From Pleomorphomonas carboxyditropha (GTDB taxonomy: Bacteria > Pseudomonadota > Alphaproteobacteria > Rhizobiales > Pleomorphomonadaceae), in contig NZ_NQVN01000002.1 in NCBI RefSeq assembly GCF_002770725.1, forward strand, positions 88,622-152,621: a DNA stretch of 64,000 nt, given 5' to 3'. Below the pieces are notes generated by a model. It was not told the DNA's origin, made no database searches, and worked only from the letters and a program-made list of their open reading frames with translations. The translations under genes were made by a program, and so were the position numbers. Of this stretch, positions 1 through 62,447 are shown piece after piece (within the stretch, counting starts at the first letter, position 1; each line of letters begins with the position of its first letter).

Positions 1-1
1 C

Positions 2-169
2 AATATCACCATGACGCTCGGCTATCTGTCGATGAACGGCACCTACGCCACCGACCAGGGTGCGCTGATGGCCGGCGCCTTCATCCTGATTGCTCCGGTG
101 ATCGTCCTGTTCCTCGTCCTGCAACGCTTCTTCATCTCCGGCATGACCGCCGGTGCCGTCAAAGGATAG
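2..169 (+). CDS. Carbohydrate ABC transporter permease, MalG type (3' end only)
   Basis: Only the last 55 codons are in the window, and the gene enters from the left edge. The visible residues contain one hydrophobic segment (AGAFILIAPVIVLFLVLQ) followed by RFFISGMTAGAVKG, the usual C-terminal ending of MalG-type permeases (family knowledge). The stop codon lies 3 bases before the ADP-ribosylglycohydrolase gene, so the two are in one operon. It most likely forms one half of the membrane channel of the importer whose ATPase is at 2326-3402 and whose binding protein is at 11300-12616 (inference from position). The partner permease must lie to the left of the window. Confidence 0.85.
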   Translation, partial: NITMTLGYLSMNGTYATDQGALMAGAFILIAPVIVLFLVLQRFFISGMTAGAVKG

Positions 170-172
170 ACC

Positions 173-2323
173 ATGATCGCACCCGCTCCTCAGCCGCCGT
201 CGCCGGGCATTGCCGAACGCACCTATGCCGGCGTGCTCGGCAAGCTGATCGGCGTCTATCTCGGACGGGCCGTCGAGGGCTGGTCATACGAGGCGATCAC
301 CGACACCTTCGGCGAAGTTGCCGACTACGTGAACCATCAGGTCAACTGGCCGCTGATCGTGCCGGACGACGACATCTCCGGCACCTTCCTGTTCTACCGG
401 GCGCTCGAGGACAACGGCTGTCCGGCCGATATCGACGCCGGCGCCATCGGCGACAGCTGGCTGAACTATATCGTCGAGGACAGGACGGTGCTCTGGTGGG
501 GCGGCCTCGGCCGGTCGACCGAGCACACCGCCTACCTGCGGCTGAAAGCCGGCGTCCGGGCGCCCGCCAGCGGCTCGATCGCCCTCAACGGCAAGGGCAT
601 GGCCGAACAGATCGGCGCCGAGATCTTCATCGACACCTGGGCGATGGTCAATCCGGGCGATCCGGAGCGTGCCGCCGCCATGGCGCGCGCCGCCGCCTCG
701 GTCAGTCACGACGGCGTCGCCGTGGAGGCCGCCGTGCTGCTCGCCGCCATGGAGGCGGCGGCCTATGGCGAACGCGATCTCGATCGTCTGCTCGACCTCG
801 GCCTCGCCTATTGCCGCAGCGACGAACTCAGGACGGTGATCGCCGACGTCCGCGGTGTTTGCGCCCGGTCCGGCGACGACTGGCGAGCGGTGCGTGCCTG
901 GCTCGGCGCCCACCATGGCTACGAGCGCTACCCGGGCAACTGCCCGATGGTTCCCAACCATGCGCTGCTGATTGCCTCGCTGCTGCTCGGCGGCGACGAT
1001 TTCCAGAAAGGGCTGAAGATCGCCGTGTCGTCGGGCTGGGATACCGATTGCAACGCTGGCAACCTCGGTGCCCTCAACGGCATCCGTCTCGGACTGGCCG
1101 GCCTGGAGACCGGCCCGGATTTCCGCGGCCCGGTGGCCGATCGCATGTATGTGGTCGGCGCCGATGGCGGCGAATGCCTGACCGACGCGGTGATCGAAAC
1201 CAGGCGGATCCTGCGCACCGCCGCCCGGCTGCGCGGCGAGACCTGCGCCGAGCCGCCGGCCCGCTTCGCCTTCGAGTTCCCCGGATCGGTGCAGGGATTT
1301 GGCCCTTGCCCGCTGCACCGGGGGCGGCAGGCGGTGACGCGGGTCGGCAACCTCGACCGGACGGGCGACGGCAACGGCCTCGAAATCGCCTTCGAAGGAC
1401 TGGCCGCCGGCGTCACCGGTACCGTCTCGGTTCCGACCTTCATCGATCCGAAGCCGCGCGGCGTCTCCGACACCTCCTATTTCGAGGTGGTCGCCAGCCC
1501 GTCGCTCTACGCCACGCAGACGGTGACCGGCGTCGTCCGCAGCTTTGCCGAAACCAACCCGTCGCTGCGCTTCTTCATCCATTATTTCGACGGGACCGAA
1601 CAACTTGCCCGCCTTGACGGGCCGTGGATCGCCGTCGGCAGGGGCGACAATCCGGTGCGCTTCGAGGTGCCGGATACCGGGGGGCGGCCGATCCACCGGC
1701 TCGGCATCGAGCTCGGTGCGCCGCGGCGTCTCGACGGCCGCATCGGCCTCCTGTCGCTCGACTGGAAGGGAGCGCCGGCGAACCTGGTGTTCGGCACCGC
1801 CAGGGAGCTGACGCCGGCACTCACACCGTGGGACACCGCCACCTTCTGGACGCGGCAATTCGTCGCCTCGGCGCGGCACTGGGCGACCGATATCTACAAT
1901 ACCTTCACGCTGTCGCATCCCGGCGACAACGGCGTCATCACCTTTGGCGGCCGCGACTGGACGGATTATGCGATCGCCTCCGAACTGGTGCTGGAGCTGC
2001 ACGAAACGGCGGGCCTCGTCATCCGGGCGCGCGGTCATCGTCGCTACTACGCCGGCGTCGTCCACGCCGGCCGGGCCTCGATCGTCCGCCGGCGGGACGA
2101 CCGGCTCGACGTGCTCGCCTCGGTGCCGTTCGGCTTTGAGCCCAACAGCCGCCAGCGCTTCGAGGTCAGTGCCGAAGGCGACCGGATCGCGCTCGCCATC
2201 GGTGGTGTGCCGCTGCTCTCGGCAACCGACGACGCCTACGCGTCGGGCGGCGCCGGCTTCCTCATCGAGGGCGGTACGGTACCGGCAAACGGCCTCAGCG
2301 TGCGAAGGATCGGAGGAAATTAG
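173..2323 (+). CDS. Long ADP-ribosylglycohydrolase family protein (copy 1)
   Basis: 716 residues with no signal peptide, so cytoplasmic. The N-terminal half (about residues 15-350) is an ADP-ribosylglycohydrolase (DraG/ARH) fold: YAGVLGKLIGVYLGRAVEGW near the start, the metal-binding DDDISG at 65-70, and WDTDCNAGN at about 289-297 supplying the second set of Mg ligands. DraG/ARH enzymes cleave N- or O-glycosidic bonds to ADP-ribose. The C-terminal ~350 residues are beta-rich, with DWTDYAIASEL and AGLVIRARGHRRYYAG resembling a concanavalin/LamG-like sandwich. Classical DraG proteins are about 300 residues, so the protein is more than twice the usual length. It lies between a sugar permease and its ATPase, so the substrate is more likely an imported N-glycoside than a modified protein (inference). 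A full-length paralogue is at 5738-7798. Confidence 0.85.
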   Translation: MIAPAPQPPSPGIAERTYAGVLGKLIGVYLGRAVEGWSYEAITDTFGEVADYVNHQVNWPLIVPDDDISGTFLFYRALEDNGCPADIDAGAIGDSWLNYIVEDRTVLWWGGLGRSTEHTAYLRLKAGVRAPASGSIALNGKGMAEQIGAEIFIDTWAMVNPGDPERAAAMARAAASVSHDGVAVEAAVLLAAMEAAAYGERDLDRLLDLGLAYCRSDELRTVIADVRGVCARSGDDWRAVRAWLGAHHGYERYPGNCPMVPNHALLIASLLLGGDDFQKGLKIAVSSGWDTDCNAGNLGALNGIRLGLAGLETGPDFRGPVADRMYVVGADGGECLTDAVIETRRILRTAARLRGETCAEPPARFAFEFPGSVQGFGPCPLHRGRQAVTRVGNLDRTGDGNGLEIAFEGLAAGVTGTVSVPTFIDPKPRGVSDTSYFEVVASPSLYATQTVTGVVRSFAETNPSLRFFIHYFDGTEQLARLDGPWIAVGRGDNPVRFEVPDTGGRPIHRLGIELGAPRRLDGRIGLLSLDWKGAPANLVFGTARELTPALTPWDTATFWTRQFVASARHWATDIYNTFTLSHPGDNGVITFGGRDWTDYAIASELVLELHETAGLVIRARGHRRYYAGVVHAGRASIVRRRDDRLDVLASVPFGFEPNSRQRFEVSAEGDRIALAIGGVPLLSATDDAYASGGAGFLIEGGTVPANGLSVRRIGGN

Positions 2324-2325
2324 GC

Positions 2326-3399
<1,074 letters not shown>

Positions 3400-3402
<3 letters not shown>

Positions 3403-3448
3403 AGCATCGGACCGAAAAGTGGACTCCGGTTTTCGGAGAATCCGATGC
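3400..3448. repeat. Intergenic palindromic repeat starting at the stop codon
   Basis: An inverted repeat, gcatcgga (3404-3411) with tccgatgc (3441-3448), encloses a second partly palindromic portion (ccgaaaag / ttttcgg). The element opens with TAGAGC, and its TAG is the stop codon of the ATPase gene. It resembles the mosaic palindromic repeats common between genes in Rhizobiales genomes. It may also end transcription or stabilise the mRNA. Related elements with the same opening are at 4583 and 28463. Confidence 0.6.
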
Positions 3449-3583
3449 GATAACAAAGATTGGATCGCCATGCGTCCGTCGGGGCGCACGGCGATCAAGG
3501 GCAAGGGTGCCGATCGCGGCATTGAGGAAAGGCGAGCACATTCCGCCTGAAAAGATCGGCCGCCCGCCGATGAAAGCTGGAAG

Positions 3584-4585
3584 ATGGTCGGGTTCGGGAA
3601 GAAGAAGGCAGCAACCATTCGGGACGTGGCGCGCGAAGCGGGGGTTTCCATCGCCGCGGTGTCCTATGCCCTCAACCGCGGCGGTACCATCGGCGAGGAG
3701 GTGCGGCAGCGCGTCCTCGATGTGGCCGAACGCCTTGGCTATCGGGCCAATCAATCGGCGCGCGCCGTACGCACGGGCCGAAGCATGACGCTCGGTTTGC
3801 TGGTGCCCGATCTCAACAATCCTTATTACCCGGCGCTCGCCCAGTCGTTCGAGCGGGCGGCGCGACGGCAAGGCTACACGGTGATGCTGATCGATACCGC
3901 CGGCGAGACCGCCGAGGAGATCCCCGGCATTCGCAGGCTCGAACAGCACGGGGTCGACGGCATCGTCTGGTGTCAGACGGCGGCGCACGACGCGATGTCG
4001 CCGACCGACTTCTCCATCCCGGTGGTGATCATCGGCACGCCGATCGACGGCGTCGACAACGTCACCACCAAAGACATCGACGGCGGTGCCATCCTCGGCC
4101 GCCATCTCATCGATATGGGACACCGCCGCATCGGCATGCTGACGGCCGGCGCCATCGCCGATAGCAAATACGACCGGCGGAGCGGCTTCGTCGAGGCCAC
4201 GCGGGCGGCCGCCGATATTGTCTGGGAGGAGAAGGTGCCGTTCGCCGTCGACCTGCCGGAGAACGCCCGCGCCGCGCTGGCCCGCCGCGACGTCACGGCG
4301 GTGATGTGCGGCAACGATCTCATCGCCGTCGGCGCGTTGCGCGCCGCCCGGCAGCTCGGCATCGCCGTTCCGGACGAGCTGTCGGTGGTCGGCTTCGACG
4401 ACATCCCTTGGGCGGGCATCGTCGAGCCGCCGCTGACCACCATCCGCCAGCCGGTCGGCGAGATGGCCGAAGCGGCGCTGACGCTGCTGCTCGACCGCTT
4501 CGCAAAGCCCGATCGGCCGGCGCACTACCTCAAGGTCGGCGTCGATCTCGTCGTCAGGGCGAGTGTCGCCCGCCGTATGCCTTAG
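3584..4585 (+). CDS. LacI family transcriptional regulator
   Basis: 333 residues. The N-terminal helix-turn-helix AATIRDVAREAGVSIAAVSYALN (about 8-30) is the LacI DNA-recognition unit. It is followed by a periplasmic-binding-protein-like sensor domain (GLLVPDLNNPYYPALAQSFERA; later VVGFDDIPWAGIVEPPLTTIRQP). LacI proteins bind palindromic operators and respond to a sugar ligand. It is the last gene of the plus-strand group and faces the long minus-strand catabolic operon, so it probably controls both arms of the ADP-ribosylglycohydrolase system (inference). The 181-base gap before it holds a palindromic repeat, so it may have its own promoter. One candidate operator is the AAACGTTT palindrome at 12695-12702. 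Confidence 0.93.
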   Translation: MVGFGKKKAATIRDVAREAGVSIAAVSYALNRGGTIGEEVRQRVLDVAERLGYRANQSARAVRTGRSMTLGLLVPDLNNPYYPALAQSFERAARRQGYTVMLIDTAGETAEEIPGIRRLEQHGVDGIVWCQTAAHDAMSPTDFSIPVVIIGTPIDGVDNVTTKDIDGGAILGRHLIDMGHRRIGMLTAGAIADSKYDRRSGFVEATRAAADIVWEEKVPFAVDLPENARAALARRDVTAVMCGNDLIAVGALRAARQLGIAVPDELSVVGFDDIPWAGIVEPPLTTIRQPVGEMAEAALTLLLDRFAKPDRPAHYLKVGVDLVVRASVARRMP

Positions 4586-4682
4586 AGCGCTGTTCGATCT
4601 GATTGAATCAGATCAGCGCTCCAAGTTTTTGTTCCTTAAGCATCATCTTTTCGATCCTCGTTTCACTCCGGTCGGATGATGC
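4583..4682. repeat. Composite palindromic intergenic repeat between convergent genes
   Basis: Two adjacent palindromes fill the space between the convergent LacI and phosphorylase genes. The first pairs gagcgct (4585-4591) with agcgctc (4615-4621) and has an inner stem gatctgatt/aatcagatc. The second pairs gcatcatc (4640-4647) with gatgatgc (4675-4682). The element opens with TAGAGC, whose TAG is the stop codon of the LacI gene. The form fits rhizobial REP-like mosaic repeats. It may serve as a bidirectional terminator, although no strong T-run follows the first stem. Confidence 0.6.
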
Positions 4683-4714
4683 CCTAGCGGCTTCGGCGAA
4701 TGGCTTGCCGGCGG

Positions 4715-5632
4715 TCAGAGCCCCATCGACGGCAGCCAGTGGCGCTTGCCGGCGGCGGTCCGCTTCTTGTCCATCCGGTCGAGCAGGACGCAGCCCTCGA
4801 GCGCCACCTCGATCGCGCGGGCGTGGCCGGCGCCGTGGCTGAAGGCGGCGTTGGTGATGACGTTGTCGGCCACCGAGCAGATCGAGCCGCCGCGGAAGCC
4901 GAACAGCGCGGCGAGCGTCACCACGGCCGCCGATTCGCGGTCGCCGTTGAGCACACCGGCGCGATTGTAGGTGGCGAGCATCTCGATGTTCCAGGGTTGC
5001 AGATAGCCGCCGACGCCCGGCCGGCCGACGCCGACGAAATCGCTGTCGACCGACAATGTCACGCCGACGTGGTAGTCGGCGCCGAGCGTGTCGGCCGCCT
5101 CGGCCATGGCGGCGACCACCTCATAGTGGCTGGCCGCCGGATAGGCCCGGTCGACATAGGCGCGCGTCATGCCTTCCTCGCGCACCACGCCCGAGGAGAT
5201 GACGATGTCGCCGGGCTTGACGTCGGTGCCGATGCCGCCGGATCCGCCGACGCGCAGATAGGTGTGGGCCGGCGAGAACTCCATGAAGTCATAGAGCAGC
5301 AGCTCGGCCTCCGACGAACCGGAACCGCCGGACACCACGGTGATGCGCGTGCCCCGGTAGCTGCCGGTGATCGAGGTGAACATGCCGGACTGGCCGATGA
5401 CCTCGGCGTCCTCCAGCAGTTCGCCGATATGGCTGGTCGGATCGCCGGCATAGGCGATCAGCGGATCGCGCACCGTCACCAGCACGAAGCCGCCGACCTT
5501 GTCCGGGTCGATGCGGGTCATCGCCGGCCGGCCATCCACCATGAGGCCGCGGTGCGGCACGTTGTTCCAGTAGGGATAGCGGTCATGGATCTGGGAGAGC
5601 GCGGCCCGCCGGGCCACTTCGTCACGGGACAT
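4715..5632 (-). CDS. Nucleoside phosphorylase (PNP/UDP family)
   Basis: 305 residues of the purine-nucleoside/uridine phosphorylase family, which split nucleosides with phosphate into base and (deoxy)ribose-1-phosphate. Visible family features are VTVRDPLIAYAGDPTSHIGELLEDAEV near residue 50, the phosphate/ribose region VVSGGSGSSEAELLLYDF and the glycine-rich LRVGGSGGIGTDVKPGDIVIS. The C-terminal part (NIEMLATYNRAGVLNGDRESAAVVTLAALFG) corresponds to the M-E ribose-binding and base-binding region. It is somewhat longer than E. coli Udp (about 250). It is the last gene of the minus-strand catabolic operon, 105 bases after the second ADP-ribosylglycohydrolase. Base specificity cannot be read from the sequence. 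Confidence 0.85.
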   Translation of the reverse strand: MSRDEVARRAALSQIHDRYPYWNNVPHRGLMVDGRPAMTRIDPDKVGGFVLVTVRDPLIAYAGDPTSHIGELLEDAEVIGQSGMFTSITGSYRGTRITVVSGGSGSSEAELLLYDFMEFSPAHTYLRVGGSGGIGTDVKPGDIVISSGVVREEGMTRAYVDRAYPAASHYEVVAAMAEAADTLGADYHVGVTLSVDSDFVGVGRPGVGGYLQPWNIEMLATYNRAGVLNGDRESAAVVTLAALFGFRGGSICSVADNVITNAAFSHGAGHARAIEVALEGCVLLDRMDKKRTAAGKRHWLPSMGL

Positions 5633-5737
5633 CTCGGTTTCTTTCTAAGGCCTCCGCCCAGTCCGGCAGTCTGCAACTCTTCGGGCCAAACGGATGCGCG
5701 AAAACAAGAAGATAGAGCAAAAGTCGGTTTTGTTGCC

Positions 5738-7798
5738 CTAGCGAATGGCGTGGACCAGAAAGCCGTCGGCAACCACGGTTCCCTTTTCCACGATGAAGCC
5801 GGCGCCGCCGCTGGCGAATGCGGCGTCACGCGCCTCGCCGGCCGGCTTGCCGTCGACTTTCAGCGTCAGGCGGTCGCCGGCGAGGCTGAATTGCAGGTCG
5901 CGCTTGCCCTCGGCGTCGGGATCGATGGCGACGCGCGACAGCACGGTGACCTCGTCGTCGCGGCGCCTGATGATCAGCGCCTCGCGACCTCTCAGCATGG
6001 CGGCATAGTAGCGGCGATGGCCGCGCGCCCGGGCGACCAGGCCGGCGCCGTCGTTGATCGAGAAGTCGAGCGAGCTTGCGACGGAATAGTTGTCCCAGTC
6101 GCGGCTGCCGGTGGTGACGACGCCGTTGCCGTCGGGATGGGAAATGCACAGCGTGTACTTGAAGTCGGGGGCAAAATGCCGGGCTGAGCTGACCCAGGCC
6201 CTGACCCAGAACGGCGTCAGGTTCCAGATCGACTTGATCAGCATGCCTCGGATTTCATAGGCGGCCGGCGCGCCCGACCAGTCGATGCTGCGGACCGTCG
6301 CGACGCCGTCGCAGCGACCGTCGCTGGCGAACTCGACGCCGAGCCGGTAGAGCGGCAGGCCGTTGGTGTCGGGCACCGTCCAGAGCAGATCGCGCTCCTC
6401 GGACCATGGTCCGTCGAGGCGCAGCGTCTCGTCGTCGCGGCCGTAGACGACGGCATAGAGGCGCGCCCGCACACCGGTTGGCCGGTCGATCTCCGCCGTC
6501 ACCGTCTGGCCCGGATAGAGGGTCGGACTTGCCACCATGGCGAAGCTCGACTGGGCGGCGAAGGGCTCGACGAACACCGGCGTCGAGATCGAGCCGCTGA
6601 TGCCGCGCGACAGCCCGTGGAACAGCACCTCGAGCCCCGATCCATCGTTCGTGAGGCGGGCGACCGCCTGCCGTCCGTCATGGCGAGGGCAGGGCGCAAA
6701 TCCCTGCACCGAGCCGGGATAGTCGAAGCCGTATTTCGGCCGGCGCGCCGGTTGCGGCCGGCCGTTGAGCGCGTCGGCCGCCGCGGCGACGGCGCGGGTC
6801 TCCCGCACGGCATCGGTGATGCCGGCCGCGCCGTCCGCCGTGACGACATACATGTAGTCGCCGACCGCGCCGCGCAGGTCCGGCCCGCGATCGATGGCGG
6901 CGAGGCCGAGGCGAATGCCGTTGAGGCAGCCGACGTTGCCGGCGTTGCAATCGGTGTCCCAGCCGGCGGTGGTGGCGATGGTCAGCGAGCGGCCGAAGTC
7001 GTCGCCGGCCATCAGCAGCGCCATCAGCACGACGGCATGATTGGGAACGATGTGGCATGGCCCGTCGTAATGGGCATAGCCGTGATTGGCGGCGATCCAG
7101 GCGCGGACGCGATGCCAGTCGTCGGTCGCCGCGCACTGTTCGCGGATGTCGCCGACCACGCGGAGCAGGTGCCGGTCGGAGACGTAGCGAAGGCCGGCGT
7201 CGAGCAGCCGGTCGACATCCGGCTCCCCGAAGGCCAGCGCCTCCATGGTGCCGAGCAGCACCGCCGCGTCGAGCGCGATGCCGTCGTGGCTGACCGAGGC
7301 GGCGGCCCGCACCATCTGCGCGGCGCGATCGGGGTCGCCGGGCGAGGCCATGGCGAAGGCGTCCATGAAGATCTGCGCGCCGATCTGGGCCGGCATCCAT
7401 GGGCCGTTGAGGTCGTGGCTGCCGGACAGCGGGGCGGGCACCCCGTCCCTGAGGCGCAGGTAGGCGGTGTGTTCGGTCGACCGGCCGAGGCCGCCCCACC
7501 ACAGGATGGTCTTCTCGTCGACGATGTAGTTGAGCCAGGTGCGGCCGACCGCCGCCGGATCGAGCGGCGCCGGATAGCCGTTGTCCTCGAGCGCCCGGAA
7601 GAAGGCGAAGGTTCCGGAAATATCGTCGTCGGGCAGGACGATCGGCAGCTTCATCCGATCGTTGACGAAATAGTCGATCTCGCCGAACGTCTCCATGATG
7701 CGTTCATAGGACCAGCCCTCGACCGGACGGCCGTGATAGACGCCGAGGATCTTGCCGAGGACGCCCGCGTAGATCTTCTCTTCGATTGTCCGTTCCAT
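5738..7798 (-). CDS. Long ADP-ribosylglycohydrolase family protein (copy 2)
   Basis: 686 residues, a full-length paralogue of the protein at 173-2323. It has the same start (YAGVLGKILGVYHGRPVEGW), DDDISG at 57-62, WDTDCNAGNVGCLNGIRLGL, and the same extra C-terminal beta-rich region (DWDNYSVASSLDFS, AGLVARARGHRRYYAAML). There is no signal peptide. Its start is 3 bases after the nucleoside hydrolase stop, so the two are translationally linked. Keeping both metal sites and the extension in both copies argues that each is active, perhaps on different leaving groups (inference). The family relation to DraG/ARH is clear, but the substrate is not. Confidence 0.85.
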   Translation of the reverse strand: MERTIEEKIYAGVLGKILGVYHGRPVEGWSYERIMETFGEIDYFVNDRMKLPIVLPDDDISGTFAFFRALEDNGYPAPLDPAAVGRTWLNYIVDEKTILWWGGLGRSTEHTAYLRLRDGVPAPLSGSHDLNGPWMPAQIGAQIFMDAFAMASPGDPDRAAQMVRAAASVSHDGIALDAAVLLGTMEALAFGEPDVDRLLDAGLRYVSDRHLLRVVGDIREQCAATDDWHRVRAWIAANHGYAHYDGPCHIVPNHAVVLMALLMAGDDFGRSLTIATTAGWDTDCNAGNVGCLNGIRLGLAAIDRGPDLRGAVGDYMYVVTADGAAGITDAVRETRAVAAAADALNGRPQPARRPKYGFDYPGSVQGFAPCPRHDGRQAVARLTNDGSGLEVLFHGLSRGISGSISTPVFVEPFAAQSSFAMVASPTLYPGQTVTAEIDRPTGVRARLYAVVYGRDDETLRLDGPWSEERDLLWTVPDTNGLPLYRLGVEFASDGRCDGVATVRSIDWSGAPAAYEIRGMLIKSIWNLTPFWVRAWVSSARHFAPDFKYTLCISHPDGNGVVTTGSRDWDNYSVASSLDFSINDGAGLVARARGHRRYYAAMLRGREALIIRRRDDEVTVLSRVAIDPDAEGKRDLQFSLAGDRLTLKVDGKPAGEARDAAFASGGAGFIVEKGTVVADGFLVHAIR

Positions 7799-7801
7799 CG
7801 A

Positions 7802-8749
7802 TCACTCCAGGACCCGCTGCATCACCAGTTCGAGGAAGCGGGCGAAATTGGCGCTCGACGCCACCTCGATCTCGGGCAGATGCGCCCAGGCGTGATGGTG
7901 GCGGAAATCGGCCACCGTCTGGCCGAGCGTCAGCTCGCCGCGCGTTTCGACGCCGACCCGCGCCCGCGTCGTGCCGATCAGGCTGGGATCGATCACCGCG
8001 GCGACGGCGAGCGAGTCGATCAGCACGCAGTAGGACTCGAAGCCGCGGCCCTGGACGAAGCGCACCATCTTTTCGACGATGTTGGCTTCCGGACGCGGCG
8101 ACGCCCTGAGCGCCACCAGTTGCGCCTCGGAAAAGTTGATGTCGAAATGGGTGGCGACGTCGATGCCGACGGCGCGGACCGGCACGCCGGATTCGAACAC
8201 CAGCTTTGCCGCTTCGGGATCGACGAAGACGTTCCATTCGCTTTGCGGCGTGTCGCCGGTGGCGTTGGCGAAGGCATAGCGGTTGAGCCCGAAGGAGCCG
8301 GCGATGGAGACCACCTCCCTGATTGCCGGCCCGATCGACGGCTCCTTCATCAGCGCCATGGCAAGATTGGTGAGCGGGCCCAGCGTCACGATCGTCACCT
8401 CGCCGGGATGGCCGCGGACGGTATCGATGATCTGGTCGATGCCGTGCCTTGCGGCCGGCGCCGTCACCGGCTCGGGCAGGTAGATCTCGGCTTGACCGTC
8501 GGCGCCGTGCGAGAACGGATCCTTGGCGAGGGGCCGGGCCAGCGGCTTGCCCATGCCGCGCGCCACCGGTATGTCGGTCCGCTTGAGGAGTTCCAGCGTT
8601 TTCAGCGCGTTGCGCGTGGTGACGTCGATCGGGTAGTTGCCGGCCACCGACGAAATGCCGAGCACGTCCACCTCGGCCGACTTCACGGCGAGAATGATGG
8701 CGAGCGTGTCGTCCATGCCGGGATCGGTGTCGATCAGGATCTTCTTCAC
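7802..8749 (-). CDS. Nucleoside hydrolase (IunH/RihA-like)
   Basis: 315 residues counted from GTG at 8749, which overlaps the stop of the kinase gene as GTGA. A longer frame exists upstream, but VKKILIDTDPGMDDTLAI is the classic N-terminus of the family and supplies the Ca-binding Asp cluster. Further family features are VTLGPLTNLAMAL and NVFVDPEAAKLVFESG in the ribose/Ca pocket. Nucleoside hydrolases cleave the N-glycosidic bond of ribonucleosides to give free ribose and base. With the phosphorylase and the PfkB kinase this gives a plausible route from a ribosylated compound to a sugar phosphate. The exact nucleoside is unknown. Confidence 0.9.
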   Translation of the reverse strand: MKKILIDTDPGMDDTLAIILAVKSAEVDVLGISSVAGNYPIDVTTRNALKTLELLKRTDIPVARGMGKPLARPLAKDPFSHGADGQAEIYLPEPVTAPAARHGIDQIIDTVRGHPGEVTIVTLGPLTNLAMALMKEPSIGPAIREVVSIAGSFGLNRYAFANATGDTPQSEWNVFVDPEAAKLVFESGVPVRAVGIDVATHFDINFSEAQLVALRASPRPEANIVEKMVRFVQGRGFESYCVLIDSLAVAAVIDPSLIGTTRARVGVETRGELTLGQTVADFRHHHAWAHLPEIEVASSANFARFLELVMQRVLE

Positions 8750-9669
8750 GGGGTCTGCTCCAATCGGGACATCAAGGTGGCGGTGAGATCGGCGGCGGCC
8801 TGGCGGACCGGCTCGCTGCCGCTCTCGGGCGGGCCATATTGGGAAATGGCGAGGCGGGCGGCTGCCGTCGCCATGGCGGCGCATTCGACCGGCGATCGCC
8901 CCTCGGCGAGGCCGATCGACGCCGCGCCGCCGAAGGCGTTGCCGCCGCCGGTGACGTCGACGGCGTCACCGGCAAGGCTCGGCACGAAACGCACGGCGTC
9001 GGGCGTCAGCACGTAGCTGCCGCGCGCGCCGGCCCGCAGGAACACCGTACCGGTACCGATGGCCCTCAGGCCGGCGATGAGCGTCGCCTCGTCGCGGCTG
9101 CCGTAGATGAGCGACGCCTCGTCGAGGTTGATCGACAGGGCGGCGACCCGGCGCGCCCGGTCTTCGATCTCGACGCGGTTGGCCGGCGCGCAGGCGTCAA
9201 GAGCGATCTCCCAGAGGGTCACCGGCCGGTGGCGGGCGAGAAGCGGCTCCAGCCCGGACCAGAAGGCGGCATCGAGGTTGCGGAACAGATAGAGCGAGCG
9301 GGCATCGCCGATCACTCTGGCGACGTCGTCGGGGCCTGGTTCGATCGCCCGGAAATGCGCCATGCCGTAGACCGGCATCTCGGTCCGCGTCCGTTCGTCG
9401 ATATAACGCAATATGTTGCGCGGCGCGTGCTCTTCGCTGAGGCGGAGCCCGGCCGCCGACAGGCCGTTGCGTTGCAGCCAGGGGCCGAATGTGTCGGGCA
9501 GATCGCGGCCGGTGCCGGTCACCAGCACGGCGCTGCGGCTGAACAGCGCCGCGCCGGCCAGCGCGTAGAGGCCGGCGCCGCCCGGCACCGAGCGGCGGCT
9601 GGTGCCGTCGGCATAGACGATGTCATCCATCAGGACGGCGCCGACGACGAGATCGGACCGCTCAGCCAT
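8746..9669 (-). CDS. PfkB family carbohydrate kinase with an altered active-site motif
   Basis: 307 residues, the normal PfkB length. The N-terminal signature (SVPGGAGLYALAGAALF, about 28-44) and the C-terminal region DVTGGGNAFGGAASIGLAEG (238-257) are present. PfkB kinases phosphorylate sugars or nucleosides, and the catalytic base is normally the Asp of a GAGD motif. Here it reads GGGN, with Asn at residue 244. This variant occurs in some eukaryotic PfkB relatives (family knowledge), so loss of activity should not be assumed. The gene overlaps YjbQ by 8 bases at its start and the nucleoside hydrolase by 4 bases at its end. Ribose or a fructosamine-like compound are reasonable substrate guesses. 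Confidence 0.85.
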   Translation of the reverse strand: MAERSDLVVGAVLMDDIVYADGTSRRSVPGGAGLYALAGAALFSRSAVLVTGTGRDLPDTFGPWLQRNGLSAAGLRLSEEHAPRNILRYIDERTRTEMPVYGMAHFRAIEPGPDDVARVIGDARSLYLFRNLDAAFWSGLEPLLARHRPVTLWEIALDACAPANRVEIEDRARRVAALSINLDEASLIYGSRDEATLIAGLRAIGTGTVFLRAGARGSYVLTPDAVRFVPSLAGDAVDVTGGGNAFGGAASIGLAEGRSPVECAAMATAAARLAISQYGPPESGSEPVRQAAADLTATLMSRLEQTP

Positions 9670-10066
9670 GACACTTCACGAAGAACTGCCGCTGGCGCGG
9701 CCCGTCGAATTCGTTGAAGAATACGCCCTGGGAGTGGCCGAGCAGCGGCGCGCCCTCGCTGATGATCAGCGTCAGGCTGACGCCGACCAGCACCGACTTG
9801 ACGTGACCGGCGGCGTCCTGCGGCGTGTCGAACTGGTGCTTGAAGTCGATGCGGGTCGGCACCAGGCGGTTGATGTCGTCATGCACATCCTCGAGCCCCT
9901 TGGGATCCCAGAAGGAGGTGATCGACAGGCCGGCGGTGGTATGCGGCACGAACACGACGCAAAGCCCCTCGCGGATGCCCGACGCGCCGACCGCTTCGCG
10001 GATATCGGCGGTGATGTCGAAGGCGCGGTTGCCGTCGGTCGAAAGCTTGTGGTTGGTGAGCGTCAT
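9662..10066 (-). CDS. YjbQ family protein (UPF0047, secondary thiamine-phosphate synthase-like)
   Basis: 134 residues from ATG at 10066, which overlaps the SIS gene stop as ATGA. This start is preferred over the longer frame because the family begins with a short strand such as MTLTNHKLSTDGNRAFDIT. The hallmark sequences VPHTTAGLSI and GHSQGVFFNEFDGPR are present, and the length is typical of YjbQ. E. coli YjbQ has weak thiamine-phosphate synthase activity, but its real role is not settled. Its fixed place in a sugar operon between a SIS protein and a kinase suggests an auxiliary metabolic role (inference). Confidence 0.88.
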   Translation of the reverse strand: MTLTNHKLSTDGNRAFDITADIREAVGASGIREGLCVVFVPHTTAGLSITSFWDPKGLEDVHDDINRLVPTRIDFKHQFDTPQDAAGHVKSVLVGVSLTLIISEGAPLLGHSQGVFFNEFDGPRQRQFFVKCHG

Positions 10067-11214
10067 CGGCCGGGCTCCCAGAGCAGGCTCTGCTGGACGG
10101 TGGCGGCGGTGGAGCTGTCGGCCCATGGGCCCTTGCCGCCGCGGCCGTACTCGGCACCGTCCTGCTCGCTGAGATGGGCGGCGAGCAGCGCCAGCACGGC
10201 GCTGGTCGGAAGCGGCGACCAACCCTCGGCGATCGGCGGGGTGATCTCCAGCACGGCGTGGCCGAGCGAACGGGCGAGCGCCGCCGTCGCACCGCCGCCG
10301 ACCAGCAGCAGGCGGCGCCCGAGTCTATGCATGTAGGCGACGAGTTCGAGGGCGCGGCTTTCGGCGACGCTGCCGGCCGGTACCACCACGACGGTGGCGA
10401 TCTCCTGCGGCGCCGCGTCGAAATAGTTGAGATGCGTCCATTCCTCGAGGTCGCGGGCGAGGGCGTGGCGGCCCGATGCCTCGAGCAGCTTGGCGGCGCC
10501 GTATTCGGCGACCGCGAAATTCGGCCCGGCGCCAACGAACTCGAACAGCCGGCGGTCGGCGAGGCCGGCGGCGGCCGCCCTGGCGGGGGCGTCGAGGGCG
10601 GCAATCACCTCGCCGATGTCACCGAGGTGCCGCCGGAGGCCGGCGCGGCGCGCCTGCGCCTCGTCCATGGTGATCCGCATCCGCACTTCGCCAAAGCGGA
10701 TGGCGAGGAGCTGAAGGCCGAGCAGCGCGAACACATAGGGACAGAACCCCGGCGCGCTCGGCAGCTCGGGGACGGGCAGGACGAGGCGGCGGTCGGCGGT
10801 GACGGCAAGGCGGCCTTCGGCGTTCCGGGTCACGGCAAGCACCCGGCCGCCGGCAGCCTTCCACAGGCCGGCGGCCTCCACCACCCGGGCGGCGGCTCCG
10901 GAGTTGGATAGGGCAACGAGCAGCGCATTCTCGATTTCGCGGCGCGGGAACAACTGCGACTGGTAACGGCCGGCCTCCAGCGGCGTCCTGACCTCGGCAG
11001 CGACGCCGCCATCGGACCAAAAGGCTGTCTCGGCGGCCTTGGCGGCAAACCAGGAATCGCCGCTGCCGGTCAGCACGACGCGGCGGCTGCGGTAGATGTC
11101 CGGCGTCTCGACGGCGAGGCGTGCGCCGCGTTCCAGCGCGTCGAACGCGGCGAGCGCGGCGGAGGGTGTCGCCAGGATCTGTTCGCGCATTGGATTGGAT
11201 GAAGACAAGTTCAA
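10063..11214 (-). CDS. SIS domain protein (sugar-phosphate isomerase/deglycase family)
   Basis: 383 residues with two SIS (sugar isomerase) lobes: VVLTGSGDSWFAAKAAETAF at about residues 47-66 and a second lobe with FVGAGPNFAVAEYGAAKLLEASG followed by EEWTHLNYFDA. The layout is that of the GlmS isomerase half and of deglycases such as FrlB, which process amino-sugar or fructosamine phosphates. The glutamine-amidotransferase domain of GlmS is absent. It follows the binding-protein gene after an 85-base gap containing a strong hairpin. A deglycase/deaminase acting on the PfkB kinase product is a plausible role (inference). Confidence 0.82.
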   Translation of the reverse strand: MNLSSSNPMREQILATPSAALAAFDALERGARLAVETPDIYRSRRVVLTGSGDSWFAAKAAETAFWSDGGVAAEVRTPLEAGRYQSQLFPRREIENALLVALSNSGAAARVVEAAGLWKAAGGRVLAVTRNAEGRLAVTADRRLVLPVPELPSAPGFCPYVFALLGLQLLAIRFGEVRMRITMDEAQARRAGLRRHLGDIGEVIAALDAPARAAAAGLADRRLFEFVGAGPNFAVAEYGAAKLLEASGRHALARDLEEWTHLNYFDAAPQEIATVVVVPAGSVAESRALELVAYMHRLGRRLLLVGGGATAALARSLGHAVLEITPPIAEGWSPLPTSAVLALLAAHLSEQDGAEYGRGGKGPWADSSTAATVQQSLLWEPGR

Positions 11215-11253
11215 CCTCCCGGAACGGGTCCGGATACGGAGAGAAAAAGCGGG

Positions 11254-11288
11254 CGGCGCGGGCCTCGCTGGGGAGTAGGCCCGCGCCG
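11254..11288. other. Intercistronic hairpin after the binding-protein gene
   Basis: A perfect 11-base-pair stem, cggcgcgggcc (11254-11264) with ggcccgcgccg (11278-11288), and a 13-base loop. It lies just after the binding-protein stop on the minus strand and before the SIS gene. There is no T-run, so it is not a classical terminator. Such stems after binding-protein genes are known to stabilise the upstream message and raise its level relative to downstream genes. Confidence 0.65.
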
Positions 11289-11299
11289 TGGACTGGCGG

Positions 11300-12616
11300 T
11301 CAGAGAGAAGGCTTGGGCAAATTCTGGGTGAGCCCTTGTGCCTTTTCTTCGGCGAAGGTCGTTTCTGCCTTCTTGAGCATATCGGCAGCGCTCATCCTGC
11401 CGAGCCAGACGGATTCGATGTCCTCGAACATCACCTGGTTGGTGGCAGGGGGAAAGAACGTGCCGATCTTGAAGCCGAAGCTGCCCTTGTCGACCGCGGT
11501 CGTCATATCGGCCATGGCGTCGAGGAAGGACTTGGTAAGACCGGTGGCCTCGGGATCCCTGGGGAACTGTTTCAGCGGAATGCCCCAGTAGCCCGGCCAG
11601 ACTTCGGCCATGCCGGCGGCGAACTCGGGCGAGAAAATGCGGTCGAGCACAAGGGCGGCGCCGTCCTTGACCTCGGAATGGGCATTGATCGACAGCGTGA
11701 AGGCGACGCCGATGTCGTAGATCGGATAGGGCTGCGCGGCATCGAGACGGGGGATCGGCGCGAAGGCGAAATCGTCGGCCGTGGCATCCTTGAAATAATT
11801 GGTCGCCCACTGGAAGCCGATCGACGGCGCGAAGAAGAACGGCGCCTTCTTTTGGCTGACCAGGGAAATCGACTCGTCGAAGTTCAGCGAGAAATAGTCC
11901 TTGCCGCCGAGATAGCCGGCGTTGAACCAGCGGGCGGACTCGTCGATCGCCCTGGTCATTTCCGGCGAGGTCCAGCCCTCGCCGCTGGTCAGGATGTCGT
12001 AGAACTTGGCGGGCCCGACGATGTTGTTGACGAAGATCGAGGCGTAGTTCTCGTTGACCGGCTGCCAGCCCTTGTTGCCGGTCACCGAGGCGTAGAGGCC
12101 GTCGGCCTGCGCCGCCTTCATCACCGTCTCGACCTCCTCGAGGGTCTTGGGAACGGCCCAGCCTTTTTCGGCCAGCAGCGCCTTGTTGTAGAACATGCCG
12201 TCGGAGATCAACGACGGCGGCAGGCAGTAGAGGTGGCCGAGCTGCTGGCAGGTATCGAGCACCGGCTTCAGCAGCCTGTCGGACCAGCCGTATTTCTCGG
12301 CGTAGGGCTCGAGGGGCTCAAGCGCGCCGGCCTTGGCGAGCGGGGCGATGTAGGACGGCCCCGAGGTGTAGACCAGGTCGGGGCCTTCGCCGGCCAGTAC
12401 GGAGACGCGGACATTGTTGTCCACGTCGTTGTTGTAGTCCATCTGCAATTCATATTGGTCCTGGCTGGCGTTGAACGGCTCGACCAGGTTCTTTTGAAAG
12501 GCTTCCTGCAGGTTGGGCGGAGCTCCCCAGAACCATAGCGTGATCGGCTCCCTGGCCAGGGCCTGCGAAGACGCGGCGACCAGCAGCGATGCTGCTGCAA
12601 TGGCGACTTTCGACAT
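11300..12616 (-). CDS. Sugar ABC transporter substrate-binding protein (family 1)
   Basis: 438 residues. The N-terminus MSKVAIAAASLLVAASSQALA is a signal peptide with a probable cut after ALA, so the mature protein is periplasmic. The start of the mature chain, REPITLWFWGAPPNLQEAFQKNLVEPFNAS, is typical of MalE/UgpB-type binding proteins, and the length is normal. It delivers substrate to the permease and ATPase at 1-169 and 2326-3402 (inference), and it is the first gene of the seven-gene catabolic operon. The substrate is unknown. The operon content suggests a glycoside with an N-linked or ribosyl group. Confidence 0.9.
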   Translation of the reverse strand: MSKVAIAAASLLVAASSQALAREPITLWFWGAPPNLQEAFQKNLVEPFNASQDQYELQMDYNNDVDNNVRVSVLAGEGPDLVYTSGPSYIAPLAKAGALEPLEPYAEKYGWSDRLLKPVLDTCQQLGHLYCLPPSLISDGMFYNKALLAEKGWAVPKTLEEVETVMKAAQADGLYASVTGNKGWQPVNENYASIFVNNIVGPAKFYDILTSGEGWTSPEMTRAIDESARWFNAGYLGGKDYFSLNFDESISLVSQKKAPFFFAPSIGFQWATNYFKDATADDFAFAPIPRLDAAQPYPIYDIGVAFTLSINAHSEVKDGAALVLDRIFSPEFAAGMAEVWPGYWGIPLKQFPRDPEATGLTKSFLDAMADMTTAVDKGSFGFKIGTFFPPATNQVMFEDIESVWLGRMSAADMLKKAETTFAEEKAQGLTQNLPKPSL

Positions 12617-13152
12617 ATGTGAACTTCCCTGTTGGTGTCCTTTCCGGACGTTCCCCTGAGAGCCCGTTATTCAGGTCTCTCCAGCAAGGAAGTTAAACGT
12701 TTCATTTAATGCGTCAAGTCCATTTCCCACGGGAGGGAGATGGCATTTCCGCCTTCAGTTCGAGGAGGAGGTTGGGCTATGGAAGTGGGAAACCGGTCGA
12801 AATCTGCAAGGTCTTCGGAATCGATAAGACGTTTTGGATGGGGCCATCAGCTTCGGCTCATATGCTTCCAAGGACCGCCTTCTCCATGGAGAACAGTTGA
12901 AGCGGAAGGTGGTGGCCAGTTGGCTCCCGCGGATATAGCTATTGCGCACGGAAACAGTATGCCGGCAATCCACGTGGCTACAGGCCTGCTGTCATAAACT
13001 GCATCATGTCGTGGAAACGTCCTCGCCGCGGCAACCCCCCACAAGCTTGTTGTCGCCGCTGTCGCAAGAAGATTGGTAACTACCGCAAATGCTATCCTGA
13101 AAGCCAGCTATTCCAGGAGACGTCAGAGCCTCGCACAAATACAGTTGCGGGT
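12617..13152. other. Intergenic region (536 bases) upstream of the binding-protein operon
   Basis: It holds the promoter of the minus-strand binding-protein operon. Close to that gene is an AT-rich stretch with an AAACGTTT palindrome at 12695-12702. The rest contains short open frames on both strands (for example 12740-12997) with unusual composition and no family resemblance that I recognise. I support no gene here. Confidence 0.5.
12691..12709. promoter_or_regulatory. Candidate LacI-type operator
   Basis: The 8-base palindrome AAACGTTT (12695-12702) sits in an AT-rich setting about 80 bases upstream of the binding-protein start codon. LacI-family operators often have a central CG flanked by A/T half-sites. 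It is a candidate target of the LacI protein at 3584-4585. It is short, and chance occurrence cannot be ruled out. Confidence 0.35.
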
Positions 13153-25933: not shown

Positions 25934-27256
25934 TTAATCCTTGAGGATCAGTTCGATCACCGGCACCACGACATCGGGCTTGATGACCGGCAACTCGAGG
26001 CTCAGCATGTCTTCTCCGACGGCAACGCCGATATTGGAATCGACTTCGGCATCCGGATCGAGCCAATGGATTTCGCTGGCGTCATGCAGGAATTGCGCAT
26101 ACCTGACCTTGCGTCCCAAGCCTTCGATATGAATGTGCCGGAACGGCCAAGTCTGGACATGCAGATAGAGCCGGTTGCCCTTCTGGGTGAAACGGCAACC
26201 ATTCGGCGCCTTGTATATCGACGGCCCGGCCCCGTAGATCGCGCGTCCGTTGAGACGCATCCATTCGCCATAGACGTCGAGCGCCTTGATGACGCGGGCG
26301 TCGAACGTGCCGCGTCCGGTGGGGCCGACATTCATCAACAAATTGCCGCCGAGCGAGACCGTATCGATCAGGATGTTGAGAAGCTGACCCGCATCCTTCC
26401 AACTCGTCTCGTCGCGATGATAGCCCCAGGAGCCGCTGAAGGTGTGGCAGGCTTCCCAGCGCACCGGCAGCCCGGCGACGGTCGGCGCGATACGCGGCGT
26501 ATATTGTTCCGGCGTCACGAGATCGGGCAGATGGTTTTCGTCGCGCGGCAGGTCGAGGCGGTCGCCGACGATGATGTCGGGCTGCAACTCCCGCACCAGC
26601 TTGATCAGGCTCTCGCTCTCCCAGTCGGCACGCCCCTTGCCGGGGAATCCCTTGTAGTCGCGGCAGGGATAGCTGAAGTCGAACCAGATCACGTCGATTT
26701 TGCCAAATTCCGTCAAAAGCTCCGTCACCTGATCGCGCATGTATTTGGCATAGCGGGTCATGTCGCGGCCCTGATTGAGCTTGGCCGCATCGGGATGGTT
26801 GCGTAGCGGGTGATGCCCATCGATCGGGAAATCGGGATGATGCCAGTCGAGCAGCGAGTAATAGAAGCCGACCTTGAGCCCTTCGGCCCGCAGAGCTTCG
26901 ACATAGGGGCCGATAAGGTCCTTGCCGTAGGGCGTATTGGTCACTTTGTAGTCGGTGACCTTGCTGTCCCACAAACAGAAGCCTTCATGGTGCTTGGCGG
27001 TCAGCACCACATACTTCATGCCGGCTGCGCGGGCGCGGCGCGCCCATTCGCGAGCGTCGTAGAGATCTGGATCGAAGTTGTCGAAATATTTCTGATAAGC
27101 CTCGGTGGTGAACTCTTCGCGGCTCTTCAGCCATTCGTGCCGAGCGCCGAGCGTATAAAGCCCGAAATGGATGAACATGCCGAACCGATCGTGCGCAAAC
27201 CACGCCTTGCCATCGGTCGCATCAGGACCTCCTCTGACCGTTCCCACGTTGCTCAC
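25934..27256 (-). CDS. Alpha-L-fucosidase, GH29, cytoplasmic
   Basis: 440 residues from GTG at 27256, preceded by gggagga at a good distance. A longer frame begins 72 bases earlier but would include the LacI-type operator at 27282-27297 in coding sequence, so it is rejected. Family features are RFGMFIHFGLYTLGARHEW, MKYVVLTAKHHEGFCLWDS, and WFDFSYP, where Asp193 stands at the nucleophile position of GH29. There is no signal peptide, so hydrolysis happens after import. GH29 enzymes release alpha-L-fucose from glycans. It is the first gene of the operon. An acid-base residue cannot be assigned with certainty by eye. Confidence 0.9.
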   Translation of the reverse strand: MSNVGTVRGGPDATDGKAWFAHDRFGMFIHFGLYTLGARHEWLKSREEFTTEAYQKYFDNFDPDLYDAREWARRARAAGMKYVVLTAKHHEGFCLWDSKVTDYKVTNTPYGKDLIGPYVEALRAEGLKVGFYYSLLDWHHPDFPIDGHHPLRNHPDAAKLNQGRDMTRYAKYMRDQVTELLTEFGKIDVIWFDFSYPCRDYKGFPGKGRADWESESLIKLVRELQPDIIVGDRLDLPRDENHLPDLVTPEQYTPRIAPTVAGLPVRWEACHTFSGSWGYHRDETSWKDAGQLLNILIDTVSLGGNLLMNVGPTGRGTFDARVIKALDVYGEWMRLNGRAIYGAGPSIYKAPNGCRFTQKGNRLYLHVQTWPFRHIHIEGLGRKVRYAQFLHDASEIHWLDPDAEVDSNIGVAVGEDMLSLELPVIKPDVVVPVIELILKD

Positions 27257-27281
27257 AATATCCTCCCAGATATTTTGCTCA

Positions 27282-27297
27282 ATCGAACCGGTTCGAT
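27282..27297. promoter_or_regulatory. LacI-type operator, perfect palindrome
   Basis: ATCGAACCGGTTCGAT is a 16-base perfect palindrome with central CG, the form preferred by LacI-family repressors. It lies 26 bases upstream of the fucosidase GTG start and about 160 bases upstream of the divergent LacI gene. A partial copy (gcggttcga, 27442-27450) lies just before the LacI start, and another (ccggttcga, 25092-25100) before the binding-protein gene. It is the likely target of the regulator at 27458-28465. Confidence 0.7.
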
Positions 27298-27457
27298 AAT
27301 CCGTAGATCCTTTCATTGCGGATGTCAAGCATGCTGTTGAAAACTTCAGCCATTGTATTGTGTGAATTCATATAGATGTTAGTTCTATGGTAGAAGCTTT
27401 AGGGAATGCGCCTTTCGTCGGGAAGGCTTGAAATTATAGAAGCGGTTCGAAGGACTG

Positions 27458-60195: not shown

Positions 60196-60200
60196 GGCGA

Positions 60201-61112: not shown

Positions 61113-61140
61113 TGTCCAGCCCCTCTTTTCGCTGCAAAAG

Positions 61141-61156
61141 ATATCGTATACGATAT
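61141..61156. promoter_or_regulatory. FCD-GntR operator in the divergent hydroxyproline promoter
   Basis: ATATCGTATACGATAT is a perfect 16-base palindrome. Its core matches the GT-N-AC pattern of FadR-subfamily GntR operators. It lies in the 67-base gap between the divergent DapA-like and oxidase genes, 24 bases before the oxidase start. The GntR protein at 58532-59185 is the likely binder, controlling both arms of the pathway at one site. Confidence 0.7.
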
Positions 61157-61179
61157 TCGATAAGTCAGAGGATGGTCAA

Positions 61180-62421: not shown

Positions 62422-62447
62422 ACCAGAAGCCGCAAGGACAAGGATCG

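What the first reader, a model, noticed from the sequence alone, without database searches (positions are those of the whole stretch)
1..12616. Two long ADP-ribosylglycohydrolases in a dedicated uptake and N-glycoside breakdown system
Seen directly: two full-length paralogues (716 and 686 residues) keep both metal-binding motifs of the DraG/ARH fold and share a ~350-residue beta-rich C-terminal extension. They lie in a convergent two-operon locus that also encodes a sugar importer, a nucleoside hydrolase, a nucleoside phosphorylase, a PfkB kinase, a SIS protein, YjbQ and a LacI regulator. Known: DraG/ARH enzymes normally remove ADP-ribose from proteins or small molecules and are about half this size. 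Inference: the locus imports an N-ribosylated or related glycoside and dismantles it by two glycohydrolases, a hydrolase and a phosphorylase, with kinase and SIS steps feeding central metabolism. I know of no described pathway with this gene set.
Basis: partly seen in the sequence, partly recalled or inferred. Interest (0 to 1): 0.72.

Follow-up and report, generated by a model that had tools for sequence, protein, structure and literature searches.

The report
Regulated ribosylated-nucleoside uptake and breakdown locus
A bacterium carries two apparently co-regulated gene blocks that look built to import an unusual ribose-containing, nucleoside-like compound and cut it up with two modular ADP-ribosylglycohydrolase-like enzymes; a similar gene set recurs in distant bacteria, but what it eats is not known.

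Summary
Two convergent operons encode a complete sugar-type ABC importer (two permeases lie just outside the window), a LacI regulator, two long ADP-ribosylglycohydrolase-fold proteins (52% identical) and nucleoside-hydrolase, PNP-fold, PfkB-fold, SIS and YjbQ proteins. One 13-bp operator precedes both operons; its 12-bp core pattern has three sites in the genome. The long proteins combine an ARH domain, a beta-rich middle and a CBM66-like domain. They form one clade with two sister clades, each spanning Alphaproteobacteria and Bacillota. The nucleoside-type genes go with this clade (NH in 13 of 19 loci, against 1 of 61 other long-ARH loci; PfkB, SIS, YjbQ and PNP in none of the 61). Some Bacillota versions add adenine deaminase, phosphopentomutase, DeoD or a deoxyribosyltransferase-family protein. 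Best reading: import and hydrolytic dismantling of a ribosylated, nucleoside-like compound; substrate and all activities unproven. Boldest reading: catabolism of ribosyl-adenosines.

The parts
173..2323 (+). Long ARH-fold protein A (716 aa): ARH domain, beta-rich middle, CBM66-like domain
   Evidence: PF03747 E 5.7e-47; clade A of the tree; domain plan by alignment to the modelled paralogue
2326..3402 (+). UgpC/MalK-type ABC ATPase
   Evidence: NF008653 461.4 bits, cut-off 432
3584..4585 (+). LacI-family regulator; best models RbsR and PurR, below their cut-offs
4715..5632 (-). PNP/uridine-phosphorylase-fold protein without three phosphate-site residues; predicted purine nucleosidase (inference)
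   Evidence: PF01048; residue table, 13 of 13
5738..7798 (-). Long ARH-fold protein B (686 aa)
   Evidence: PF03747 E 6.5e-48; AF2 model pLDDT 94.2; Foldseek DraG, MJ1187, ARH3, CBM66
7802..8749 (-). Nucleoside-hydrolase-fold protein; Ile at the usual His/Trp/Cys proton-donor position
   Evidence: PF01156 E 5.2e-82
8746..9669 (-). PfkB-fold protein with GGGN in place of GAGD
   Evidence: PF00294
9662..10066 (-). YjbQ/UPF0047
   Evidence: PF01894, TIGR00149 108 bits, cut-off 67.75; start codon from the sequence
10063..11214 (-). GlmS-like double SIS protein, catalytic-type Glu258 and His261 kept
11300..12616 (-). CUT1-type solute-binding protein
   Evidence: PF01547; AF2 pLDDT 89.4; Foldseek
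12693..12705 (+). Operator-like TTAAACGTTTCAT in front of the - operon; an identical copy lies in front of the + operon (L008 11426-11438, contig C22 about 87047, outside the window)
   Evidence: footprint in genome G287

Best explanation
A LacI-type repressor probably controls two convergent operons that together make one catabolic pathway. A CUT1-type ABC importer (binding protein, two permeases just outside the window, UgpC-type ATPase) brings in a ribose-bearing, nucleoside-like compound. The two long ARH-CBM66 proteins act, probably in the cytoplasm, as ribosidases with different, non-redundant specificities and split off ribofuranosyl residues. The PNP-fold protein (as a hydrolytic purine nucleosidase) and the modified nucleoside hydrolase cut the remaining N-glycosidic bond. 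The SIS protein handles a phospho- or amino-sugar product; YjbQ and the PfkB-fold protein have unknown roles. Shown: gene content, shared operator-like site, domain plan, conservation as a set, residue changes. Inferred: regulation by this LacI protein, substrate class, cell compartment, order of steps and every activity.
For: The same 13-mer stands before both operons, and its core pattern has three sites in the genome; both operons of G287 carry a variant. Window-type long proteins are one clade (100/100) with two sister clades A (100/96) and B (97/89), each holding Alphaproteobacteria and Bacillota. Of 19 window-type loci, NH is in 13 (one, L027, of another NH type), PfkB in 12, SIS in 10, YjbQ in 10 (11 with the window's own, which the script dropped) and the long PNP in 9. 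Of 61 other long-ARH loci, NH is in 1 and the others in 0. Some Bacillota loci add a deoxyribosyltransferase-family protein (7 of 19), adenine deaminase (5), phosphopentomutase (4), DeoD (3). In 10 of 45 loci of the Chloroflexota-rich group a kinase of one cluster is present, in 10 of 10 within 345 bp of the long ARH and on its strand; 4 of these 10 pass the ribokinase cut-off. Two of three annotated plasmid loci viewed have long ARH, second ARH and annotated ribokinase. ARH fold and CBM66-like domain.
Against: No activity, ligand or growth data. SIS, YjbQ and a PfkB-fold protein without its catalytic Asp are not needed for simple nucleoside breakdown. The binding protein's nearest folds bind chitin and xylan oligosaccharides or monosaccharides; a dinucleotide binder appears only from rank 15. 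Six of the ten adjacent kinases score far below the cut-offs of the kinase models they match, and 35 of 45 loci of that group show no such kinase in the stretch held. 15 of 16 rhizobial-type loci lack it too and have little beyond importer, regulator and long ARH, so the general substrate of long ARHs may not be a nucleoside. 6 of 19 window-type loci show no NH and 10 of 19 no long PNP in the stretch held, several being cut by contig ends.
Confidence: 0.55

Rival explanations
1. An Amadori/glycosylamine pathway: the importer brings in a fructosyl- or ribulosyl-amine; the PfkB-fold protein phosphorylates it and the SIS protein deglycates it as FrlD and FrlB do, the long ARHs cutting an N-glycosidic bond first.
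For: The SIS profile matches a putative fructose-amino-acid-6-P deglycase (3eua, E 7.7e-13) and, better, GlmS-type structures (2zj3, E 2.6e-30), and Glu258 and His261 are kept in 14 of 14. SIS and a PfkB-type protein also lie together in L112 near what reads by eye as a BMP-type binding protein.
Against: The PfkB-fold protein has Asn for the catalytic Asp in 14 of 14. It did not match the fructoselysine kinase model at E 0.001. The adenine deaminase, phosphopentomutase, DeoD and deoxyribosyltransferase neighbours are unexplained.
Confidence: 0.15
2. An oligosaccharide or plain-glycoside utilisation system in which the long ARHs are furanosidases of a polysaccharide fragment, and the nucleoside-type genes serve a side product.
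For: CUT1 importer, LacI regulator, CBM66-like domain (reported CBM66 ligands: terminal fructose of fructans, xanthan; PMC11002231 passages); binding protein fold nearest to chitin and xylan oligosaccharide binders; rhizobial-type loci hold little beyond importer, regulator and long ARH.
Against: In the window clade the nucleoside-type genes recur as a set across phyla, and both operons share the operator-like site.
Confidence: 0.2
3. A true ADP-ribose system: removal of ADP-ribose from proteins or small molecules, with accidental neighbours.
For: ARH fold with DraG and ARH3 among the best matches; metal-motif Asp residues kept.
Against: Recurrent company of a sugar importer and regulator; C-terminal CBM66-like domain; Thr before DD lost in 27 of 28 window-clade proteins; Pfam named no macrodomain or ADP-ribosyltransferase among the ten genes scanned.
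Confidence: 0.07

Closest known systems
DraG/ARH family (DraG 2woc, MJ1187 1t5j, ARH3)
   Same: Fold of the first half, metal-motif Asp residues, Glu27
   Different: About twice as long; GWDTDC motif; Pro (clade A) or mostly Ala (clade B) before the DD; sits in importer operons
CBM66 of Bacillus subtilis levanase (4b1l, 4b1m, 4azz)
   Same: C-terminal domain by profile (E about 6e-7) and by fold (TM normalised to 4b1l 0.80)
   Different: Attached to an ARH domain; ligand-binding residues and ligand not compared
E. coli yegTUV (predicted nucleoside symporter, ARH-family YegU, PfkB-family YegV)
   Same: Transporter, ARH-family protein and PfkB-family protein in one operon
   Different: Short ARH (recalled), MFS transporter, GntR regulator YegW, no NH/PNP/SIS/YjbQ; [quoted passage not shown]
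FrlB/FrlD fructosamine catabolism (recalled) and GlmS-type SIS enzymes
   Same: SIS protein plus PfkB-fold protein; SIS catalytic-type residues kept
   Different: PfkB-fold protein lacks the catalytic Asp
Purine nucleoside salvage (DeoD, DeoB, Ade, RbsK)
   Same: These genes join the module in several Bacillota loci
   Different: Not among the genes called in the window's locus; its PNP-fold protein lacks three phosphate-site residues

Membership tests
DraG/ARH ADP-ribosylglycohydrolase | ARH fold and Pfam PF03747 | tested here: met
DraG/ARH ADP-ribosylglycohydrolase | Asp residues of both metal motifs | tested here: met
   D57, D58, D281, D283 in 60 of 60 rows
DraG/ARH ADP-ribosylglycohydrolase | Thr of the TDD motif (recalled as a metal ligand) | tested here: not met
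   Pro in both window proteins; Pro in 15 of 15 clade A, Ala 10, Pro 2, Thr 1 in clade B, Thr in 31 of 32 others; register checked against seven short ARHs
DraG/ARH ADP-ribosylglycohydrolase | Hydrolysis of ADP-ribosyl substrates | not testable with these tools
   needs enzymology
CBM66 | Fold and sequence profile | tested here: met
CBM66 | Ligand-binding residues and binding of a terminal sugar | not tested
   residues not compared; no ligand data
Nucleoside phosphorylase-I (PNP/UDP) | Fold, ribose-binding Glu, purine-type Asp (roles recalled) | tested here: met
   PF01048; Glu 13 of 13, Asp 12 of 13
Nucleoside phosphorylase-I (PNP/UDP) | Phosphate-binding Arg, Arg and Thr/Ser (roles recalled) | tested here: not met
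   Pro, Gly, Gly in 13 of 13, while three DeoD-type proteins of module loci keep them; one further Arg is kept in 13 of 13
Nucleoside hydrolase | DxDxxxDD motif | tested here: met
Nucleoside hydrolase groups I-III | His, Trp or Cys before the last Ca-binding Asp (PMC8910321, passages) | tested here: not met
   Ile in 14 of 16 aligned rows, window included; L027 and L063 differ. The same review notes a CU-NH lacking this His, so its loss does not exclude activity
PfkB sugar kinase | Catalytic Asp of GAGD (role recalled) | tested here: not met
   Asn in 12 of 12 cluster members and in L109 and L113; outgroup L112 keeps Asp
FrlB/GlmS-type SIS enzyme | Catalytic-type Glu and His (roles recalled) | tested here: met
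   E258 and H261 in 14 of 14 rows, aligned to the Glu and His of GlmS-type sequences
FrlB/GlmS-type SIS enzyme | Deglycase or isomerase activity | not testable with these tools
   needs enzymology
CUT1 ABC importer | SBP, two permeases, UgpC-type ATPase | tested here: met

The most novel reading that the evidence does not exclude
The locus is a dedicated pathway for eating disaccharide nucleosides, such as 2'- or 3'-O-ribosyl-adenosine, the dephosphorylated leftovers of TIR-derived signals and (recalled) of poly(ADP-ribose) and initiator tRNA. The clade A and B long ARH-CBM66 enzymes split the ribose-ribose bond (one per anomer or linkage), a hydrolytic purine nucleosidase releases adenine, and the altered NH, PfkB-fold and SIS proteins perform chemistry not yet described for these folds.
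Probability: 0.13. Interest if true: 0.85.

Novelty: new variant of a known kind. Interest (0 to 1): 0.62.

Why it matters
ARH-fold enzymes are studied mainly as erasers of ADP-ribosylation (recalled). The window-type module also keeps several classic enzyme folds with textbook catalytic or binding residues consistently replaced, across phyla, which makes them good targets for new enzyme chemistry. If the substrate is ribosyl-adenosine, it would show where such disaccharide nucleosides go in soil and gut.

Tried and rejected
Fructosamine (FrlB/FrlD) reading: weakened by the missing kinase Asp. Plain nucleoside salvage: weakened by the missing phosphate-site residues and the altered NH. Ring-opened (FAPy) nucleosides, thiamine links (YjbQ; a 5-formyl-THF cyclo-ligase-family gene in L111 and L113) and cytokinin or opine substrates were considered; I ran no test of them beyond the YjbQ paper search and passages. 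A PDB search with the single long protein gave only a chance hit; the 60-row profile was needed.

Paper searches: ten were run. Six were aimed at the gene set or an ARH with such a domain, and no listed paper described it by its listing; the other four were on yegTUV, CBM66, ribosyl-adenosine and YjbQ. Searches list only the top papers of more hits. The library lacks most subscription papers.

Sample searches: the PNP-fold protein was found in 1 of 385 genomes of the class sample and the PfkB-fold protein in 1 of 100 of the phylum sample, the own genome in both. Neither shows a match in G287, which has both genes, so they speak for rarity, not absence.

The kinase cluster first labelled ribokinase proved mixed: 4 of the 10 adjacent ones pass the ribokinase cut-off; the other 6 match a ribose-1-phosphate kinase model best, far below its cut-off (67-78 against 500 bits).

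Limits of the neighbourhood counts: only the best 80 matches of the scan were kept (78 loci), several loci end at contig ends, genes were called by a simple script, and overlapping genes can be dropped (the window's own YjbQ was). Rows dropped from the 60-row alignment: of 31 window-type long-ARH frames in the cluster, five (L020, the longer frames of L022 and L024, two of L026), and 21 of 47 and 11 of 17 frames of the two other clusters, for length or to keep it small. L020 was also left out of the SIS and PfkB alignments. Foldseek's list for the long protein also holds galactocerebrosidase and a phage fibre near the top with poor superposition (rmsd 14-18, TM 0.18-0.24); I set these aside.
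Full report
What is there. The window is contig C22:88622-152621 of a 5.88-Mb assembly in 80 contigs. The + operon starts 5' of the window with two permeases (L008 11448-13169) and continues with long ARH A (173-2323), a UgpC-type ATPase (461.4 bits, cut-off 432) and a LacI regulator. The - operon reads binding protein, SIS, YjbQ, PfkB-fold, nucleoside hydrolase, long ARH B, PNP-fold; each junction overlaps or lies within about 105 bases. The operons converge at 4585/4715. The genome has seven ARH-domain matches, among them a third long protein (702 aa, L012) in an importer-regulator locus without the nucleoside-type genes.

One regulon, probably. Upstream regions of both operons hold the same 13-mer TTAAACGTTTCAT: window 12693-12705 and L008 11426-11438, the only match to it with up to one mismatch in each source, against 0.02 and 0.00 expected in shuffles. 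In the whole genome the pattern TTRAACGTTTMA occurs three times (control pattern once): twice here and once on contig C5, where no related gene was called within the 7 kb looked at. Genome G287, of the same order and another family, has all twelve genes in the same two-operon layout, 56-87% identical, and the 14-mer GTTAAACGTTTGAT before each of its operons. By eye the window's two sites lie between TTGACG/TTGACA and a -10-like hexamer (sequence printed); that promoter reading, and the link to this LacI protein, are inference.

Domain plan. With 60 long proteins as alignment, AlphaFold gave mean pLDDT 94.2 for protein B. Foldseek matches DraG (2woc), MJ1187 (1t5j) and ARH3 with TM 0.64-0.80 of the target, and the CBM66 of the B. 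subtilis levanase (4b1l, 0.80). A profile of the same alignment finds 1t5j (4.6e-7, first half) and CBM66 (5.4e-7 to 5.9e-7, C-terminal) by sequence. Between them lies a beta-rich stretch, about 370-515, not identified. CBM66 is reported to bind terminal fructose of fructans, and one member xanthan (PMC11002231, passages). The metal-motif Asp residues and Glu27 are invariant in 60 of 60; the residue before DD is Thr in 31 of 32 proteins outside the window clade, Pro in 15 of 15 clade A, and Ala 10, Pro 2, Thr 1 in clade B.

Two old paralogues kept together. In the tree of these 60 proteins the 28 window-type rows are one clade (100/100), split into A (15 rows, 100/96) and B (13 rows, 97/89); both hold alphaproteobacterial and Bacillota rows, and A also Actinomycetota. 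The pair is tandem in the Bacillota loci where both were found, and split over two operons in the window and in G287. This argues for two different jobs.

Conservation of the set. The scan gave 78 loci. Of 80 loci examined (78, L012 and the window), 19 have window-type long ARHs: NH in 13 (L027's is of another type), PfkB 12, SIS 10, YjbQ 10 (11 with the window's own, dropped by the gene picker), long PNP 9, importer genes 16, two long ARHs 12. The other 61 have NH in 1 and PfkB, SIS, YjbQ and PNP in none. Some Bacillota loci add a nucleoside 2-deoxyribosyltransferase-family protein (7 of 19), adenine deaminase (5), phosphopentomutase (4) and a DeoD-type PNP (3); the one example each of Ade, DeoB and DeoD tested passes its cut-off: 572.8 vs 472.5, 565.8 vs 256, 317.6 vs 232.25.

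Why ribose. In 10 of the 45 loci of the Chloroflexota-rich group a kinase of one cluster is present, in 10 of 10 within 345 bp of the long ARH and on the same strand. Four (L042, L068, L074, L081) pass the ribokinase cut-off; six match a ribose-1-phosphate kinase model best, far below its cut-off. Of 25 plasmid records hit I viewed four, three of them annotated: two have importer, a second ARH, long ARH and annotated ribokinase; one, in Enterobacter, has only LacI, long ARH and a binding protein. Against this, 15 of 16 rhizobial-type loci lack such a kinase.

Altered enzymes. The PfkB-fold protein has GGGN (or GAGN, GCGN) for GAGD in 12 of 12 cluster members and in L109 and L113, while outgroup L112 and 11 of 11 ribokinase-cluster members with a readable motif keep Asp (3 of 14 had no readable motif). 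The PNP-fold clade has Pro, Gly and Gly where three DeoD-type proteins of module loci have Arg, Arg and Thr/Ser, but keeps one further Arg, the Glu and (12 of 13) the Asp; by recalled knowledge of MTA nucleosidase this suggests hydrolysis. The NH has Ile before the last Ca-binding Asp in 14 of 16 rows, where groups I-III have His, Trp or Cys, though a CU-NH without the His is known (PMC8910321, passages). The SIS protein keeps Glu258 and His261 in 14 of 14. The set is therefore not plain nucleoside salvage.

Distribution. The SIS protein is found in 5 of 297 genomes of the order sample, own included; of the other four only G287 has the whole locus. The PNP-fold protein was found in 1 of 385 of the class sample and the PfkB-fold protein in 1 of 100 of the phylum sample, the own genome each time; neither shows G287. 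The patchiness suggests horizontal spread; direction is not shown.

Substrate. The binding protein model (pLDDT 89.4) is nearest to chitin- and xylan-oligosaccharide binders; a dinucleotide binder of the same fold appears from rank 15, so a nucleoside-type ligand is possible in this fold but not shown. [quoted passage not shown] Their breakdown would need a ribosidase, a purine nucleosidase and, for adenine, a deaminase. Against it: these plant compounds are beta-linked, while ARH3-type enzymes are recalled as acting on alpha-linked ribose (compare the alpha-methyl ligand of 7aqm), and SIS, YjbQ and the PfkB-fold protein are left unexplained. The paper searches named in Tried and rejected listed no description of this module.

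Noticed in passing
L110, L111, L113 (Rhizobium leguminosarum pRL1 785000-817000): A sister module with importer, SIS and the altered PNP-fold protein but no window-type long ARH; L113 also has the PfkB-fold GGGN protein and NH pieces, and L111 and L113 a 5-formyl-THF cyclo-ligase-family gene.
   Followed up: partly
L011 (own genome C22:498000-511000), about 5334-12941: A second PNP-fold relative (272-aa frame, 45% identical) lies with a short ARH (346 aa), a creatininase-like gene and ABC importer genes (the last two read by eye).
   Followed up: partly
L009 (own genome C22:152000-166000): Just beyond the window's right end a BMP-type binding protein (read by eye) and ABC genes stand near a 467-aa ARH protein.
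   Followed up: no
window 37954-38760 and L011 4135-4989: Two DeoR-like regulators with almost the same first 70 or so residues in one genome, suggesting a recent duplication (by eye).
   Followed up: no
window 59197-63965: Proline racemase-family, DHDPS-family, FAD oxidoreductase and aldehyde dehydrogenase genes, a set that looks like hydroxyproline breakdown (families; pathway recalled).
   Followed up: partly
window 25934-27328, 31184-32446, 35198-36793: Alpha-L-fucosidase, GatZ/KbaZ-like and FGGY kinase genes among further sugar-importer genes read by eye.
   Followed up: no
L115 (Enterobacter hormaechei plasmid pMB8072_1, 341535-345994): LacI, long ARH and binding-protein genes without annotated permeases lie between chitoporin and glnS/nagE genes on a plasmid.
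   Followed up: no
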